NCBI GenBank assembly: GCA_025699075.1
Contig: JAILWG010000001.1
Coordinates: forward strand, 62,001 to 126,000
Direction of reading: 5' to 3'
Source of the DNA: Candidatus Nitrosopumilus sp.
GTDB lineage: Archaea > Thermoproteota > Nitrososphaeria > Nitrososphaerales > Nitrosopumilaceae
Length of the DNA stretch: 64,000 nt
Shown here: positions 18,628-43,250 of the stretch, one piece after another
How positions within the stretch are numbered: the stretch's first letter is position 1
How the letters are laid out: each line of letters begins with the position of its first letter
Notes under the pieces: generated by a model
What the model saw: the letters and a program-made list of their open reading frames with translations, nothing else
Database searches by the model: none
Told to the model about the DNA's origin: nothing
Made by a program: the position numbers and the translations under genes

Positions 18628-19764
18628 TTAGGATATTTCGTTTCTAAGTTTTTTTGTCACTGTTCCTTCAATGTTATCAAACAGAACAATCATTTTCTCT
18701 TTGTTATCAATCAAATAGTCTACGCCTCTGTCTTTTAATCTAATTTTCCATAATCTGATTTCTCTATGTTCATCAAAGAAATTTTCTATCATTTGTTCTC
18801 CTGATTTTTTAGGATCTATGAATTCCTCAAAAATATCAATTGTTTTTTCAATGTCTTCTTCTTCAATTGCTTCTTTAACTGATTGAATAGCTTGACTGAG
18901 TTGTTTCAAATTCTTTACTGGTTTAGGTAATGTTTTCTTAGTGAGTCCAAACAACCCTTTCTTTTCTTTACCTAGTTTTTCTGCAATGTTGTCTGCAAGA
19001 TCATATATTGGAATTCTGCTTAGACCGTCTCGTTTTTCATTTTGTACGATTAATCCTTTCTCTAACAGTTTTTTCAAAGCATTTTCTGCATCAATTTTAT
19101 CTAGAAATGTTGTCCAAACAATTGCTCCTATTGTATGATATCCTTGTCTAATTGATTCTAAGACTACGACTTCTTGAATTCTTTTGAATCCTTCTTCAAT
19201 TCTTACATTCATGAAGTCTTTGTCTCTAATTGATTTTCTTGCATTTTTAACATCAATTTCTATTGAACGTTTTAGTGATTCTAATGATTCTGGAACTTGA
19301 TTTAGTAATGATAAGAAACAAGCTTGATTATACCATGCCATTCCATATGTTGGATCTGATTCAATTGCTTTCTGAACTGCATCCAGAGCTTTAGAATAAT
19401 TTTTTTGCTCATAATGCACTAATCCCTTTAGATTCCAAGCTTCCGGATTTGTTACATCAATTTCTAAAATTTTATCATAGACTCTTAGTGCTTCAGGATA
19501 ATCATCTAAATGGAATCTTGCATATCCTATTTTCATCAAAGTCTCGACATTATCTGGTTCAATTCTTAGAGCCTGTTCAAAAACTTCTATGGCATCTTCT
19601 AATTTTTCATCTGCCATCAGATTTACTCCTTTTTTAAATAATTTTTTTCGATTATAATCTACATCCACCAAACTTCTTTCTTTAGGGATTGTTTCGTCTG
19701 GCTTTGATTCTTTACTCTTTATTTCCTCTAAATCCTTTGATTTCCTTCCAAACGGTTTCTTCAC
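18628..19764 (-). CDS. TPR-repeat protein with C-terminal helical region
   Basis: 378 residues. After a basic N-terminus, four TPR units cover about 35-170 (for example LMADEKLEDAIEVFEQALRI, PDNVETLMKIGYARFHLDDY, NPEAWNLKGLVHYEQKNYSK). The remainder (190-378) includes a possible winged-helix-like segment (YHTIGAIVWTTFLDKIDAEN) and a charged C-terminus. No membrane segment. It should be a protein-protein scaffold; target unknown. Convergent with the rhodanese gene, the stop codons nearly touching. Confidence 0.82.
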   Translation of the reverse strand: MKKPFGRKSKDLEEIKSKESKPDETIPKERSLVDVDYNRKKLFKKGVNLMADEKLEDAIEVFEQALRIEPDNVETLMKIGYARFHLDDYPEALRVYDKILEIDVTNPEAWNLKGLVHYEQKNYSKALDAVQKAIESDPTYGMAWYNQACFLSLLNQVPESLESLKRSIEIDVKNARKSIRDKDFMNVRIEEGFKRIQEVVVLESIRQGYHTIGAIVWTTFLDKIDAENALKKLLEKGLIVQNEKRDGLSRIPIYDLADNIAEKLGKEKKGLFGLTKKTLPKPVKNLKQLSQAIQSVKEAIEEEDIEKTIDIFEEFIDPKKSGEQMIENFFDEHREIRLWKIRLKDRGVDYLIDNKEKMIVLFDNIEGTVTKKLRNEIS

Positions 19765-19868
19765 AGCTCAATTAGGCGTTTTATCTAGATAAATACCAAC
19801 CTTAATCGAGCCTAGTGCTGTCTGCGCTGAATTTCAAATAAGATTAAGCGATCTAAATACAGAAATAC

Positions 19869-21518
19869 TTGAAATATACACAAACGATTGTGTCATCTCA
19901 GCCACGATTAGAAGTTCAAGGGCAGGCACCTTTTAAACAATCAGGTGTCTACGAAGTTCAAATTGCAATTACTGATAATCAGCCATCTGATGATGCCATT
20001 CGAACAAAACAATTTTCATCTTTATGGAGGGGAAATTTTCATCTCAGAGTAAAAGATGGAATATTTTCTGAAACTCTTGGTTCTCCTACAAATCCACTTC
20101 CGTCATCTATAGCCAACCTTGATAAAATTTGGATTGTTGTCACTGATTTATTTTCATCATTGCATTCTGTTTTTGATGTTTCTCTAACAAAATCTTCTCC
20201 GTCTGAAAGAAAACCTGAATCTACTACTGAAACAAAAACAATTTCTGATGTTCCTAAACCACAACGTTCTACAAAAACAGATGTCGTTGAAAGATCTAGT
20301 TCTGTTGGCTCCCAAGGTGACAAAGGTCCTACTGGTCCACCTGGTCCAATCGGTGACAAAGGTCCACCTGGTCCACCAGGGCAACAAGGTCCAATGGGAA
20401 ACAAAGGTCCTGAAGGTCCACCTGGTCCACCCGGCGACAAAGGTTCAACAGGTGACAAAGGTCCACAGGGTGACAAAGGAATTTCTGGCGATAAAGGATT
20501 AACTGGAGATAAAGGAATTACTGGTGATAAAGGAGATAAAGGTGACAAAGGAATTTCAGGTCCACCAGGTGACAAAGGAGAAAAAGGTTCAACAGGTCCT
20601 CTTGGCGACAAAGGTCCTACTGGATTAAAAGGCCCTCTTGGTGACAAAGGAGAAAAAGGTCCTACAGGTCCTGTGGGTGACAAAGGTTCAACTGGATTAA
20701 GAGGTGTCCCTGGAGAAAAAGGCGACAAGGGCCCACAAGGTGTACCTGGCGATAAAGGATTAACAGGTCCAACAGGTCCGCCCGGAGAAAAAGGTCCTAC
20801 TGGATTATCTGGTGTTCAAGGAGAAAAAGGAATTCAAGGTGGTCCTGGTCCAATCGGCGAGAAAGGTCCAATCGGTCCAATCGGCGACAAGGGTCCATTA
20901 GGTCCACCCGGTCCTCTTGGCGATAAAGGATTAACAGGTCCTACAGGTCCTCTTGGCTCTCAAGGTGACAAAGGTCCACTGGGTCCAATGGGAGAAAAAG
21001 GAAACAAAGGTCCTGAAGGTCCATTAGGAGAAAAAGGTCCACAAGGCCCACAAGGTCCAGCTGGTTCTAAAGGATTAACCGGAGTTCCTGGTCCTCAAGG
21101 AGAAAAAGGAGAAAAAGGTTCAGTTGGTCCACTAGGAGAAAAAGGTCCTACTGGTCCAATCGGTCCACCCGGCGACAAAGGTCCACAAGGCCCACAAGGT
21201 TCTCAAGGTGAACGTGGAACAACAGGTCCTTCTGGAGAAAAAGGTCCACAAGGTCCACAGGGAATTCAGGGTCCTCAAGGTGAACGTGGCCCCACCGGTC
21301 CTATCGGCTCAATCGGCGAACAAGGTCCAGTTGGAGGACAAGGCCCAGTAGGTCCTGCAGGTCCAAGAGGTCCACCTGGTCCACCTGGAGAAAAAGGTCC
21401 ATCTGGAGGTATGTCTTCAGAACAAAAAGCAATTTTCAAAGATTTGTTGGAGATACTTACCAACAAAAATATCATTACAACTGAAGAACAGATTAAATTA
21501 ATGAGTTATCTCTATTGA
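19869..21518 (+). CDS. Collagen-like Gly-X-Y repeat protein
   Basis: 549 residues in three parts. Residues 1-110 form a beta-rich domain ([29 protein letters not shown]) like the N-terminal domains of bacterial and phage collagen-like fibre proteins. Residues 110-146 are a Ser/Thr/Lys linker. From 147 to about 513 there are some 122 uninterrupted Gly-X-Y triplets rich in [12 protein letters not shown] and GPQ. The last 35 residues are helical ([20 protein letters not shown]) and could trimerise. No signal peptide or membrane segment is visible, so export is unclear. TTG start; GTG at 19890 is possible. Confidence 0.9.
20307..21407 (+). repeat. Collagen Gly-X-Y coding repeat tract
   Basis: About 1.1 kb of degenerate 9-base periodicity (GGT-CCA-NNN / GGT-GAC-AAA units). 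Identical short blocks such as GGTGACAAAGG recur many times. The tract is GC-richer than its surroundings and would promote slippage and recombination, so its length may vary between strains. The opposite strand carries a long Pro-rich open frame that is only a by-product of the repeat. Confidence 0.9.
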
Positions 21519-21834: not shown

Positions 21835-22155
21835 TTATCGTCTTTTAGCTGCCTTTCTCTTTGGAGCTGCTGCTTTCTTTGCTGCAGTTCTTCTCTTTGG
21901 AGCGGCTTTGCGTTTTGGTGCTGCCTTTCTCTTTGGAGCTGCTGCTTTCTTTGCTGCAGTTCTTCTCTTTGGAGCTGCTGCTTTCTTTGCTGCAGTTCTT
22001 CTCTTTGGAGCGGCTTTGCGTTTTGGTGCTGCCTTTCTCTTTGGAGCTGCTGCTTTCTTTGCTGCAGTTTTTCTAGTAGCTTTTCTTTTTGGAGCTGCAC
22101 TGGTAGATTTTTTAGTTGATCTACGTTTAGTTGCAGCTTTTCTTTTTGTAGCCAT
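21835..22155 (-). CDS. H1-like Lys/Ala/Arg/Pro repeat protein
   Basis: 106 residues built almost wholly from KRKAAP, KRRTAAKKAAAP and related units, starting MATKRKAATKRRSTKKS. Very high positive charge with Pro-spaced AAKKAAAPK motifs resembles eukaryotic histone H1 tails and bacterial Hc1/AlgP-type DNA compaction proteins. It has no acidic residues, cysteines or globular domain. DNA (or RNA) condensation is the natural inference. The gene itself consists of near-identical DNA repeats. It is a real gene rather than a shadow because only this frame gives the expected basic repeat with a clean ATG and stop. Confidence 0.75.
   Translation of the reverse strand: MATKRKAATKRRSTKKSTSAAPKRKATRKTAAKKAAAPKRKAAPKRKAAPKRRTAAKKAAAPKRRTAAKKAAAPKRKAAPKRKAAPKRRTAAKKAAAPKRKAAKRR
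21846..22075 (-). repeat. Tandem DNA repeats inside the H1-like gene
   Basis: Blocks of 36 and about 100 bases recur almost exactly; for example TCTTTGGAGCTGCTGCTTTC occurs at about 21859, 21931, 21967 and 22039. The larger unit contains one KRKAAPKRKAAP plus one KRRTAAKKAAAP module. The near-identity at third codon positions indicates recent expansion or homogenisation. Confidence 0.85.
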
Positions 22156-22437: not shown

Positions 22438-23547
22438 TTACACGCCACGTCTTTTGATGATAGTAAGCACATCTTCATCAACTAAGACATGATTTAATCC
22501 AACTCTCTGTCCTGCAAATTTTACACTTTTCCCCCAAACCAAAGCGTATCTGAATTCTCTTCTCAATCTTCTATGCATCTTATTACAAATATCTTCCACG
22601 GTGTCTCCCTCTCTTGCAATAAATGGTTCTTTGAAATCTGTTTCACCACCTTTGGGGCGCATGTAGATCCTGATGAATTTCAATTTCTCGTAGATTTTTT
22701 CTTTGAGTAAGTCGATGTTGGTATCAGAATTTGCAGACACCTCTATTACATCTGATTTAATTTTTGTTTTCAAATCTTTTAGAAACTCTTTATCTACTAA
22801 ATCGATTTTATTTAGAACTGTAAGAGCTTTTGAATAACTAATGTTTCCTGCGATATGATCAGCTAATTGCTCAGATGTTATGTCTTCTCTAATGACAACT
22901 CTGGCACTAACCAATCCATACAAATGTAAAATATCTTTAAGGTGTTTTTCTGTAATTTTTGTTAGTTTTACTTGCTGTGCAACTGCGATTCCTCCCATTG
23001 ATGCTTTTTCAATTGTGATATTTGGCGGTAATTGATTCAGTCTTATTCCTATGTTTCCTAATTCATTTGTCAAAACATCTTCGTGGTATGGTTGGAAGAC
23101 ATCCAATACCAATAAAACCAAGTCTGCGGTTCTAGCAACTGATAAAATTCTCTTGCCTAACCCTTTACCTGTGGATGCCCCTTTGATAATTCCTGGAAGG
23201 TCTAACACTTGGATTTTTGCACCTCTATATTCCATCATTCCTGGAACTACTGTTAGCGTTGTAAATTGAAAAGCTCCTACGGTGGATTTTGCTCCTGTCA
23301 TTTTATTTAGTAAAGTTGATTTTCCTACACTTGGTAATCCGATAAACACTACTGTTGCATCGCCACTGCGTCTTACGTCAAAGCCATCTTGCTTCATACC
23401 TGATTTTTTGGCAACTTCTGATTCTTGCTCTCTTTTCAGTTTCGCAATCTTTGCCTTTAGTAATCCGATATGGTGCTCAGTTGCTTTGTTAATCTGAGTT
23501 TTTGCCATTTCATCTTGAATGGCTTTAATTTTTTCAGGAATCCCCAA
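22438..23547 (-). CDS. DRG-family GTP-binding protein with TGS domain
   Basis: 369 residues of the Obg/DRG group. An N-terminal helical region (1-55) precedes the G domain: G1 GLPSVGKST near 70-78, G3 DLPG near 117-120, G4 NKID near 243-246. The C-terminal TGS domain runs about 290-369 (YMRPKGGETDFKEPFIAREG, then KFAGQRVGLNHVLVDEDV). Archaeal and eukaryotic DRG proteins bind ribosomes and assist translation. Length is normal. Stand-alone gene, divergent from the phosphoglycolate phosphatase. Confidence 0.93.
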   Translation of the reverse strand: MGIPEKIKAIQDEMAKTQINKATEHHIGLLKAKIAKLKREQESEVAKKSGMKQDGFDVRRSGDATVVFIGLPSVGKSTLLNKMTGAKSTVGAFQFTTLTVVPGMMEYRGAKIQVLDLPGIIKGASTGKGLGKRILSVARTADLVLLVLDVFQPYHEDVLTNELGNIGIRLNQLPPNITIEKASMGGIAVAQQVKLTKITEKHLKDILHLYGLVSARVVIREDITSEQLADHIAGNISYSKALTVLNKIDLVDKEFLKDLKTKIKSDVIEVSANSDTNIDLLKEKIYEKLKFIRIYMRPKGGETDFKEPFIAREGDTVEDICNKMHRRLRREFRYALVWGKSVKFAGQRVGLNHVLVDEDVLTIIKRRGV

Positions 23548-28993: not shown

Positions 28994-29941
28994 ATGGCAA
29001 AAATCAAGCAAAATTCTCCCGTACTGTTCTTCTACAATAATTCAAAAAAATGGTTAGCAAAAATTTCAAAAAATGAATCATTTCATACTCATATTGGAAT
29101 CCTGAAACATTCTGATGCAATCGGTAAAGAATATGGTTCAAAATTAATTACAAACAAAGACAAGTATGTCTATCTTCTTGAACCCACGATGTATGATTAT
29201 GTAATGAGAATTCAACACGGGACACAAATTGTCTATCCAAAAGATATCGGTTACATCATTGCAAGAGCTGGTATTGGTGACGGTCAAAAAGTCTTAGAAA
29301 TCGGAACTGGTAGTGGATCTCTAACTTCTTTTGTTGCAAGTGTTGTAAAACCTCGTGGACATGTATACACATTTGATGTTGATGAAAATTTTATGAAAAT
29401 TGCTGAGAAGAATATCAAAAAGGCGGGCGTTTCAAAATATGTTACCCAACATAATTTGGATTTAAAAACCGCCAAAAAAATGCCTCTTGAAAACATGGAT
29501 GTTGCATTAATTGATTTGGGAGATCCTTGGGTTGTAATTCCACAAGTTAGACAGATGCTTAAAGGAAGTGGAAGTCTATTTGCAATTTGTCCTACTATGA
29601 ATCAATTAGAAAAATTAACTATTGCATTAGTTGAAAATGAATTTACTGACATCGAATCTACAGAGCATATTATTAGAAACATAGAAGCTAGAGAAGGAAA
29701 AACTAGACATTCTTTCCAAGGTATAGGACATACTACCTATCTCTGCTTTGCAAGAAAGGCCTTTTTTGGTCGGGAAACTAGAAAAACTTCGGAAAATCCA
29801 AATGTTGATGAAACTGACAAAAAAACCCCCACCAAGACTGTTAAAAAATCTCCAAAGACTACCAAAAAAACATCTACAAAGACTGCTAAAAAATCAACAA
29901 AAAAACCCACTGTCAAAAAAACCGCCAAAAAATCCTCCTAG
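28994..29941 (+). CDS. trmI: tRNA (adenine-N1)-methyltransferase TrmI with basic tail
   Basis: 315 residues. The Rossmann SAM motif VLEIGTGSGSLTSF is near residues 100-113, with the acidic ribose-binding residue in YTFDVDENF and motif IV LIDLGDPW. N-terminal residues 1-75 form the small beta domain typical of TrmI. It methylates A57/A58 in the T-loop. The last 45 residues are an added Lys/Thr/Pro tail (KKTPTKTVKKSPKTTKK and similar) of H1-like composition, absent from canonical TrmI, which may raise RNA affinity. 50 bases ahead of the NAD(P)HX dehydratase gene. Confidence 0.92.
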   Translation: MAKIKQNSPVLFFYNNSKKWLAKISKNESFHTHIGILKHSDAIGKEYGSKLITNKDKYVYLLEPTMYDYVMRIQHGTQIVYPKDIGYIIARAGIGDGQKVLEIGTGSGSLTSFVASVVKPRGHVYTFDVDENFMKIAEKNIKKAGVSKYVTQHNLDLKTAKKMPLENMDVALIDLGDPWVVIPQVRQMLKGSGSLFAICPTMNQLEKLTIALVENEFTDIESTEHIIRNIEAREGKTRHSFQGIGHTTYLCFARKAFFGRETRKTSENPNVDETDKKTPTKTVKKSPKTTKKTSTKTAKKSTKKPTVKKTAKKSS

Positions 29942-41158: not shown

Positions 41159-41689
41159 TTATTTTCTTAGTTCATTAAAATTTACTTTGGATAACATTTC
41201 AAACATTTCTTTCAGTCCGTCATATTCTGATTTTGAATTCTCATCTAATTGATCATATTCTTTTTCTTTTATTTCATCTAGCTTTGCATTTGATGCTTTG
41301 AAGAATTCTTGATACTCTTTAATTTTTTCATCAGTCATTTGCTCTAAATCAAATATGACTGTGTTACTTCCGAGCAAATTTCCATTTTCATCATACAGAC
41401 TAGTTGCTTGTAATAACCCTGAAAAAGTTTCTCCGTTTTGTTTTTTAAAAGTAATTTTTCTATCAGTTACTTTGCCTGTATCAAACCAAATTTTTAAAGA
41501 ATTATTCATATCTTCCCAGGATTCTTTTGGAACATGCTCGAAGATTGGTCTTCCTATGATTTCTGATTTTGCATACCCTAGTTTGGCCGCATAGGTTGAA
41601 TTACAGTCTAAAATTACGCCTATGGAGTTGACTCTTCTCCACATTATTGGGGCGTCTTTGAGTGTCTTTCTTGCTTCTGTCTGAGGCAT
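41159..41689 (-). CDS. PAS-domain protein
   Basis: 176 residues with one PAS domain at about 12-115 (RVNSIGVILDCNSTYAAKLG, EIIGRPIFEHVP, then FSGLLQATSLYDENGNLLGS) and a charged helical C-terminus (about 118-176). No kinase or DNA-binding domain follows, so it must act through a partner. A ligand or redox sensing role is inferred from the fold. Confidence 0.85.
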   Translation of the reverse strand: MPQTEARKTLKDAPIMWRRVNSIGVILDCNSTYAAKLGYAKSEIIGRPIFEHVPKESWEDMNNSLKIWFDTGKVTDRKITFKKQNGETFSGLLQATSLYDENGNLLGSNTVIFDLEQMTDEKIKEYQEFFKASNAKLDEIKEKEYDQLDENSKSEYDGLKEMFEMLSKVNFNELRK

Positions 41690-41727
41690 TTTTTAAAATT
41701 GTATTGACTAGTTATTAAATTGAAATC

Positions 41728-42750
41728 TTAGAACCATTGATCGAGATTGTGACTCTTTTTCTCAAGAGCTTTTTTCAACCTGTTTAAAGTTGACTGGATT
41801 CTGTCCTCAGAAAAACTCCTTTCCTTTACTAAATAATTTGTCACTCCTTCATAATCTACTTCTTTAAACACAATTTCATCTACATCTGCCACCTCTGGAT
41901 TTAGGAATATTTCTCGTATTTGTTGAAAATCAATTTCTTCTAACTGTTCTTGAATTTGAGGAATGTCTTCTAATCTTGAATGTTGTTTAATCAGCTTCAT
42001 TGCAGTTTTTGGACCAATTCTCTCAAAACCGTTTGGATTAAAATCAGTTCCAATTAAAATTCCTACATCAATTAATTCTTCTCTGGTTAACCCTATTGCA
42101 TCTAGTGTCTTTTGGGTTTCTATTATTTCTGGAAGTACGTCGATGTATGTATTCCTGTTTGGGATTTTTCGTCTTCCACTGGTTGTGAAATTCCTTACCA
42201 ATCTTTTTGCTCCACACAATATGGAATCATAGTCTTGGCTGGCCGAAGCATATGCTTGTCCTGTATTTGTTAGATGAGCTGCTGTTGCTTCGCCTTCTGA
42301 TGGAGCTTCAATGTATGGAATTCCTAAATATGTAAGAAATTGTTTTGATTCTTTGACCATTCCATCTTTCATGCTGGTTGTTTGCTGTGCAAATTTTCTT
42401 GCTTCCTCCATATTTCCTGCCGCAACAGCTTTTTCATATTTTACCGTGGCATCTTTTTTAATTTGCTTCCTTCTCTCAATCTCGGCAGTTTTCAGTGATG
42501 GTGGTTTTCCATCAAAAACGTAGACTGGTTTGATGCCTAATGATAGGAAATTGATATTTCTGTATAACAGTCCGCTGAGGTGACTTGTAATTCTCCCTTC
42601 CGAATCTGATAGCTGTAATCCGTCAGGGCCTCTGATGCTTGCTAAAAACTGGTAGATTGCATTGTATGCATCAATTGCTATTACTTTATTTGAAAATGCC
42701 TCAAGAGTTGTTTTCTCTCGAATGACTAACTCTTTTAGGTTTAATCCCAT
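41728..42750 (-). CDS. fen: Flap endonuclease FEN1
   Basis: 340 residues. Metal-binding acids are visible in [35 protein letters not shown] and [12 protein letters not shown], followed by the helix-hairpin-helix region ([19 protein letters not shown]). The C-terminus [10 protein letters not shown] is a PCNA-interacting peptide (QxxLDxWF-like). It removes 5' flaps during Okazaki fragment maturation and repair. Start ATG; normal length. Confidence 0.95.
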
Positions 42751-42858
42751 AAGTTTTCTTGATGTTTTCAGGTATTTTGTGTTTGTCCTTGCAATTTGAT
42801 CGATATTAATTACAAAATTTAAAATAAAATTTAATCTTCATGCCAGTAGAACATTGAA

Positions 42859-43131
42859 TTGTCTCTGAGAAATTTCCCCCTATATGTACAGGATAAAATT
42901 TATGAAATTCGCTATGATTCAACTGATAAAATTTCAAAAATTGTTTCATATTTTCCTCTTTCTGAATCTGAAAAGCAAGAAATCGTATTCATTTTAAATG
43001 ATGATGGCTTTGACGGATTTAATTCTATTTTCACTGATTCTGTTACTGATGAAGAATGGGTTAGAACGAAAGATCAAATCAAAAAGAAATTCAAAGATGA
43101 ATTGTTTGATATTGATAATATTGGATCATAG
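42859..43131 (+). CDS. 90-aa hypothetical protein
   Basis: TTG-initiated frame of 90 codons with mixed charge (DKIYEIRYDSTDKISKIVSY, SESEKQEIVFILNDDGFDGF). It looks like a compact alpha/beta fold. It lies 38 bases ahead of the tRNA-Ser gene. No family recognised. Confidence 0.6.
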   Translation: MSLRNFPLYVQDKIYEIRYDSTDKISKIVSYFPLSESEKQEIVFILNDDGFDGFNSIFTDSVTDEEWVRTKDQIKKKFKDELFDIDNIGS

Positions 43132-43139
43132 CAATTCGC

Positions 43140-43147
43140 TTTATTAT
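43140..43147 (+). promoter_or_regulatory. TATA-like element for tRNA-Ser
   Basis: TTTATTAT is centred 25-26 bases before the first base of the tRNA, the standard archaeal TATA distance. Confidence 0.5.
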
Positions 43148-43168
43148 GGAGATAATCTCAGATTAAAT

Positions 43169-43250
43169 GCCGAGATAGCCAAGTAGTACGGCGGCCGTCT
43201 CGAAAACGGCTACGCGCAAGCGTGCGGGGGTTCGAATCCCTCTCTCGGCG
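43169..43250 (+). tRNA. tRNA-Ser(CGA)
   Basis: A 7-bp acceptor stem (GCCGAGA with TCTCGGC) encloses a complete type II cloverleaf. The anticodon stem GCCGT/ACGGC carries the loop CTCGAAA, so the anticodon is CGA (reads UCG). A long variable arm (ACGCGCAAGCGT) and the T arm GGGGGTTCGAATCCCTC mark it as tRNA-Ser. G is the discriminator base; the terminal CCA is not encoded. No intron is evident. Confidence 0.97.

What the first reader, a model, noticed from the sequence alone, without database searches (positions are those of the whole stretch)
19869..21518. Archaeal collagen-like protein with 122 unbroken Gly-X-Y triplets
The Gly-X-Y run is longer than in many bacterial collagens, never interrupted, and rich in K-G-D/K-G-E pairs that stabilise triple helices without hydroxyproline. 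An N-terminal beta domain like fibre or tail proteins and a helical end suggest trimerisation. No signal peptide is visible, so its location is a puzzle. Collagen-like proteins are rare in archaea and could build an extracellular filament, cell-surface spike or phage-like fibre.
Basis: partly seen in the sequence, partly recalled or inferred. Interest (0 to 1): 0.75.

Follow-up and report, generated by a model that had tools for sequence, protein, structure and literature searches.

The report
Signal-less archaeal collagen, conserved family-wide
Most sequenced ammonia-oxidising archaea of one large family carry, at a conserved place in the chromosome, a collagen-like protein with an unbroken triple-helix stretch and no visible export signal, so they may build a collagen rod inside the cell, where collagens are not expected.

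Summary
The collagen tract is real: 123 Gly-X-Y triplets without a break. It is neither an oddity nor, on this evidence, a viral fibre. The head domain is found in 166 of 185 genomes of the family Nitrosopumilaceae (42 of 42 listed with 10 or fewer contigs) and 0 of 120 others in the order. Whole copies (beta head, disordered linker, collagen rod, 33-34-aa cap) were parsed in 51 of 80 named loci, and a divergent TPR gene is adjacent in 75 of 78. In 12 copies of 124 triplets no glycine column changes residue although 117 of 124 vary in codon; 228 of 248 X/Y columns vary. The triple helix is thus strongly selected. The head resembles a bacterial fibre domain (hhalign 76%), whose proteins have a signal-like N-terminus in 98 of 108 cases, against 0 of 80 archaeal loci. 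No viral relatives were found. K-G-D/K-G-E pairs are depleted, not enriched. Best reading: a homotrimeric rod of about 105 nm, probably cytosolic, joining two partners. Location and ligands are unproven.

The parts
19848..19889 (+). Conserved promoter-like block directly upstream of the start (GCGATC...AAATAC...AAATACTT...ACAAACGATT), with a TATA-like AGAAATACTT at 19861-19870, about 25 nt before the GTG
   Evidence: Consensus of 79 upstream sequences. Reading it as a promoter with a leaderless transcript is inference.
19890..19892 (+).
   Evidence: GTG/ATG/TTG in 58/18/3 of 79 named loci at the matching position; in-frame stops just upstream in several copies; P0001 has ATG there
19890..20192 (+). 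N-terminal beta-sandwich head, about 101 aa
20193..20306 (+). Variable Ser/Lys/Pro-rich linker, 38 aa, predicted disordered
   Evidence: pLDDT below 50 for residues 102-123 and 125-139; variable among relatives
20307..21413 (+). Uninterrupted collagen tract, 123 Gly-X-Y triplets
   Evidence: glycine invariant in 12 aligned relatives
21414..21518 (+). C-terminal cap of 34 aa ([34 protein letters not shown]) and stop
   Evidence: Mean column identity 93% in 21 copies, 12 tract residues included, against 66% for head plus linker in 27 copies
18628..19764 (-). Divergently transcribed TPR gene (378 aa), usual neighbour; its C-terminal half also occurs in other families of the order, so it is not shown to be a dedicated partner
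22438..23547 (-). MMR_HSR1/TGS GTPase (DRG-like), downstream chromosomal neighbour, used as a synteny marker

Best explanation
The gene encodes a homotrimeric collagen-like rod that is a core component of Nitrosopumilaceae cells. Proposed working: three chains meet through the conserved C-terminal 34-aa cap; the Pro-rich stretch before it ([18 protein letters not shown]) nucleates the triple helix, which zips towards the N-terminus; three beta-sandwich heads are left on disordered tethers. At about 0.286 nm per residue (recalled) the window's rod is about 105 nm long. It would work as a stiff spacer or scaffold that holds a partner of the heads and a partner of the cap apart. With no visible signal peptide or membrane segment it most likely acts in the cytosol or at the inner membrane face. 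Shown: architecture, selection on glycine, wide conservation in the family, synteny, lack of an export signal by sequence. Inferred: trimerisation by the cap, folding direction, location, bridging role.
For: Unbroken tract in 51 of 51 complete named copies, and no second run in any of the 75 of 80 loci with 10 or more triplets. In the 12 copies of 124 triplets, 117 of 124 Gly columns vary in codon and 0 in residue; 228 of 248 X/Y columns vary. Head found in 166 of 185 family genomes, 42 of 42 listed with at most 10 contigs. Conserved locus. Cap nearly invariant in 21 copies. N-terminal hydrophobic core in 0 of 80 archaeal loci, against 98 of 108 proteins with the related bacterial-type head. 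No LPXTG in the 51 complete copies. Acidic-residue density of the tract is alike in two Nitrosotalea copies and one Nitrosotalea-like copy (0.31-0.33 D+E per triplet) and ten others (0.31-0.39); Nitrosotalea lives at low pH (recalled), so this is a weak hint of a neutral compartment.
Against: I found no experimental data on location, expression or trimers. Most known collagen-like proteins work outside the cytosol (recalled). The related bacterial-type heads are mostly on proteins with a signal-like N-terminus. Tract length is not fixed: 84-163 triplets in the 51 copies, 68-185 in 14 complete copies of another set of 20, so a strict ruler is unlikely. One divergent copy (G143, L209) has its tract split over different frames, and one (L146) ends in a different C-terminus. 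19 of 185 family genomes gave no match. The cap was not modelled, and its likeness to the SHOCT oligomerisation domain is weak (hhalign 19% over 14 columns).
Confidence: 0.4

Rival explanations
1. A cell-surface spike or matrix fibre that leaves the cell by a route without a classical signal (unknown translocator, vesicles, or lysis of sister cells) and binds neighbours or particles with its heads.
For: The head has profile similarity to a domain found mostly on proteins with a signal-like N-terminus, some with collagen or tail-collar domains. Separate signal-bearing collagen proteins exist in Ca. Nitrosotenuis chungbukensis MY2 and in G244, and a paper reports a 'collagen-like adhesin' in the proteome of MY2 grown at low salt (PMC13037477, passage seen).
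Against: No signal-like core in 80 loci. The paper's adhesin is described as LPXTG-anchored; the 51 complete copies here have no LPXTG. MY2 also holds a signal-bearing collagen that fits better, though I cannot tell which protein was meant; the NCBIfam scan of MY2's copy of this gene failed and was not repeated.
Confidence: 0.35
2. A domesticated virus or contractile-injection tail fibre, assembled in the cytosol and released by lysis, as the collagen-like E. coli prophage fibres are thought to be.
For: Collagen-like prophage fibres are trimeric rods with end domains (PMC3368898, passages); some contractile-injection fibres have collagen shafts (PMC12923769, passages); the head shares a fibre-type motif. 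The viral fold library gave a best match at E 0.0076, TM 0.36, to an uncharacterised phage protein.
Against: No confirmed relative in viral contigs or phage records; no Pfam phage-fibre domain at E up to 1; PHROG matches no better than E 0.05, each for one of 21 members; housekeeping neighbourhood in 12 of 12 stretches and TPR gene adjacent in 75 of 78 loci; the injection-fibre paper's main text has no 'Nitroso' or 'Thaumarch'.
Confidence: 0.05
3. A solution-phase role: the long hydrophilic trimer is a flexible cytosolic crowder or stress protein, with no specific partners at its ends.
For: Linker and tract sequence vary; the tract is hydrophilic; length varies between clades.
Against: The cap (93% with its flank) and head (68% mean column identity in 21 diverse copies) are conserved, and the tract keeps register at 68-90% identity among the 11 non-Nitrosotalea copies of 124 triplets, which suggests specific contacts.
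Confidence: 0.15

Closest known systems
Streptococcal collagen-like adhesins SclB/SclA (NCBIfam NF038329, NF038330)
   Same: Long Gly-X-Y tract; a non-collagen N-terminal domain (recalled for Scl)
   Different: Scores 240.2 and 202.9 bits against cut-offs of 325 and 400; no signal-like N-terminus; no LPXTG anchor; a 33-34-aa cap instead
Collagen-like prophage tail fibres of E. coli (EPcl proteins; PMC3368898, abstract and passages)
   Same: Collagen rod with folded end domains; there a C-terminal module trimerises the rod
   Different: Chromosomal housekeeping locus, no phage-fibre Pfam domains, wide presence in one archaeal family
Bacterial-type fibre-domain proteins (FQG...LW...V-NG-F...LGS-PLP...W), some with collagen or tail-collar domains (mostly metagenomic, the named ones bacterial)
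   Same: Head motif shared by profile comparison (hhalign 76%, controls at most 0.8%)
   Different: Archaeal copies lack the signal-like N-terminus (0 of 80 against 98 of 108); the archaeal cap
Signal-bearing giant collagen proteins of the same archaeal family (L213 in G244; L152/L153 in MY2)
   Same: Archaeal Gly-X-Y proteins of the same family of organisms
   Different: Hydrophobic N-terminus, GATGPTG-type triplets, Ala/Lys/Asp-rich region, different C-terminal part

Membership tests
Collagen triple-helix repeat (PF01391) | Glycine at every third residue over a long run | tested here: met
   123 triplets; E 4.2e-58, 193.4 bits against cut-off 27.2
Collagen triple-helix repeat (PF01391) | Selection to keep glycine while X and Y vary | tested here: met
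   0 of 124 Gly columns vary in residue, 117 vary in codon, 228 of 248 X/Y columns vary, 12 copies
Collagen triple-helix repeat (PF01391) | Forms a trimeric triple helix | not testable with these tools
   Needs circular dichroism and mass measurement
Scl/LPXTG collagen-like adhesins (NF038329) | Score over the curated cut-off | tested here: not met
   240.2 bits against 325 for the window protein
Scl/LPXTG collagen-like adhesins (NF038329) | Signal peptide and LPXTG wall anchor | tested here: not met
   Hydropathy test 0 of 80 loci; no LPXTG in 51 of 51 complete copies
Prophage collagen tail fibres | Phage-fibre end domains | tested here: not met
   Pfam scan of the window protein at E up to 1 gives Collagen only
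Prophage collagen tail fibres | Lies in a prophage or has viral relatives | tested here: not met
   Syntenic housekeeping locus; no viral or phage match by sequence
Bacterial-type fibre head domain | Core motif by profile comparison, above controls | tested here: met
   hhalign probability 76.3, E 2.2e-5, 55 columns; 20 column-shuffled controls at most 0.82, reversed 0.46. Below the usual 95% mark, so common descent is likely, not proven; the set was fished with a consensus typed from recall.
Bacterial-type fibre head domain | Preceded by a signal-like N-terminus | tested here: not met
   98 of 108 qualifying proteins there, 0 of 80 archaeal loci
SHOCT oligomerisation domain (PF09851), for the C-terminal cap | Profile match | tested here: inconclusive
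   No SHOCT hit in 21 members at E up to 10; hhalign 19% against at most 6% in 20 shuffles
SgrA ligand-binding beta-sandwich (PDB 5fce), for the head | Same fold | tested here: inconclusive

The most novel reading that the evidence does not exclude
A family-wide archaeal collagen that works inside the cytosol: an internal triple-helical strut of about 105 nm in Nitrosopumilus, roughly half the cell width (about 0.2 um, recalled), that tethers two cell structures (for example membrane and chromosome or division machinery) and was made by moving a bacterial-type secreted fibre head and collagen rod to the inside of the cell.
Probability: 0.35. Interest if true: 0.88.

Novelty: new variant of a known kind. 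Interest (0 to 1): 0.68.

Why it matters
Collagen is usually thought of as an animal protein with scattered bacterial adhesins and phage fibres (recalled). Here a syntenic, mostly single-copy gene of a very abundant archaeal group (abundance recalled) keeps an unbroken triple-helix tract across Nitrosopumilus, Nitrosarchaeum, Nitrosotenuis and Nitrosotalea. If cytosolic, it would be a collagen working inside the cell and a candidate structural part in organisms whose internal architecture is little known. It is directly testable, and the tract offers a natural collagen whose stability does not rest on many K-G-D/K-G-E pairs.

Full report
WHAT IS THERE. X is Pro in 55 of 123 triplets and Y is Lys in 37; GDK occurs 20 and GEK 13 times. 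The claim of many K-G-D/K-G-E pairs fails: 6 in the window against a mean of 10.7 when its triplets are shuffled; over 52 tracts (window plus 51 relatives) the median is 6 against 10. A review states that KGE and KGD pairs stabilise strongly (PMC7824840, passages), so this tract must be stabilised in other ways, by prolines and perhaps length (inference). Pro fills 15 of 123 Y positions, and no PF13640 oxygenase was found in 13 genomes.

START. The stop-to-stop frame leaves only four codons before TTG 19869. In 79 of 80 named loci a pattern assigned a start at the position of window 19890: GTG 58, ATG 18, TTG 3. In several copies an in-frame stop lies about three codons upstream of it, and P0001 has ATG there. 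The 42 bases before it are conserved, with a TATA-like AGAAATACTT about 25 nt upstream. The protein is then 542 aa, pI 8.3, with no 19-residue stretch above 1.26 on the Kyte-Doolittle scale.

WHO HAS IT. The own genome has one copy; its only other PF01391 match is a short GADGQQ tail on DnaK. A profile of the head, run on genomes of at least 80% completeness, found it in 166 of 305 genomes of the order: 166 of 185 of the window's family and 0 of 120 others (family totals counted from its listing, in which 19 family misses come before the first non-family miss). All but two of the 166 have one match; G173 has two equal-scoring matches on different contigs, and G222 has two. Every family genome listed with 10 or fewer contigs has it (42 of 42); the 19 misses are listed with 30 or more. 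Of the five misses, three also lack the neighbouring TPR gene, and in two that gene runs into a contig end, so assembly gaps explain those five; I did not check the other misses one by one (G170 also lacks the TPR gene; G133 has the TPR gene, and only one weak collagen match). Named records (best 80 of 107 confirmed) show Nitrosopumilus, Nitrosarchaeum, Nitrosotenuis and Nitrosotalea. In a phylum sample PF01391 was matched at E 1e-6 in 76 of 79 family genomes and 28 of 318 others; this counts any collagen-like match, such as the DnaK tail.

LOCUS. In 12 of 12 long stretches the order sir - rhodanese - TPR (divergent) - collagen gene is kept, and the DRG-like GTPase follows in the 11 that extend that far. 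In 80 named loci, 75 of the 78 with enough upstream sequence have the TPR gene divergently next to it; in L116 it is further away, in L110 and L151 it was not found. The TPR protein's C-terminal half also occurs in other families of the order, so the pair is not exclusive.

SELECTION. Of 80 named loci, 51 give complete copies; 23 run off a contig or locus end, 4 hold N, 2 have another C-end (L128, a Lys to Arg change missed by my pattern; L146, a different short end). The 51 have 84-163 triplets, median 123, 12 with exactly 124 and 23 with 122-126. None of the 75 loci with 10 or more triplets has a second run outside the main one; L135 has Arg for the Gly of its last triplet. In the 12 copies of 124 triplets, aligned without gaps, glycine never changes in 124 columns while 117 vary in codon, and 228 of 248 X/Y columns vary. 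Among the 11 that are not Nitrosotalea, tract identity is 68-90% in register; the Nitrosotalea copy is at 46-49%. Of 20 copies taken from handle-only genomes, some of them the same records as named loci, 14 are complete with 68-185 triplets, 5 end with the contig and 1 in N. Against: G143 (L209), a single-contig genome with a divergent head, has its tract split over different frames; sequencing error and real decay cannot be told apart. The G129 and G260 copies are broken by runs of N.

MECHANISM. The anatomy is a dumbbell: three heads on tethers, a long rod, a small cap. By analogy with collagen-like prophage fibres, where end modules trimerise the rod (PMC3368898, passages), the cap and the Pro-rich end ([13 protein letters not shown]) should start folding. 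With no sign of export by sequence, I favour an internal scaffold that bridges two partners; a surface fibre exported by an unknown route is the main rival. One search shows similar acidic-residue density in two Nitrosotalea copies, one Nitrosotalea-like copy and ten others, a weak hint of a neutral compartment.

LITERATURE. [quoted passage not shown] Nitrosotenuis chungbukensis MY2 (PMC13037477, passage). That genome holds both this gene (L137) and what looks like a signal-bearing collagen gene split over two contig ends. I cannot say which was meant; the lack of LPXTG here favours the other. [quoted passage not shown] In the other listings I saw no title or abstract start that describes this protein.

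Noticed in passing
L036 (G000:C2, about 41575-43230): DnaK with a C-terminal tail of GADGQQ repeats, a short Gly-X-Y-like run that also matches PF01391.
   Followed up: no
L213 (G244); L152 and L153 (Ca. Nitrosotenuis chungbukensis MY2): A second, signal-bearing archaeal collagen with GATGPTG-type triplets; in G244 an uninterrupted run of 559 triplets, far longer than the finding's.
   Followed up: partly
window 21835-22155 (-): Lys/Arg/Ala-rich AAPKRK repeat protein, no Pfam match, convergent with the collagen gene; detected beside it in 5 of 12 relatives.
   Followed up: partly
window 28994-29941 (+): Methyltransferase-like protein ending in a long Lys/Thr/Ser tail that recalls a histone H1 tail.
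   Followed up: no
L209 (G143): The one divergent copy whose collagen tract is split over different reading frames in a single-contig genome.
   Followed up: partly
P0002: The head domain joined to a guanylate-kinase-like protein on a 1358-base contig; possibly an assembly chimera.
   Followed up: no
L211 (G330:C5): Another archaeal collagen protein of 430 aa with a zinc-ribbon-like N-terminus and no obvious signal peptide, in a different family of the phylum.
   Followed up: no
window 19848-19889: The 42 bases before the start are conserved over more than a TATA box alone would need.
   Followed up: partly
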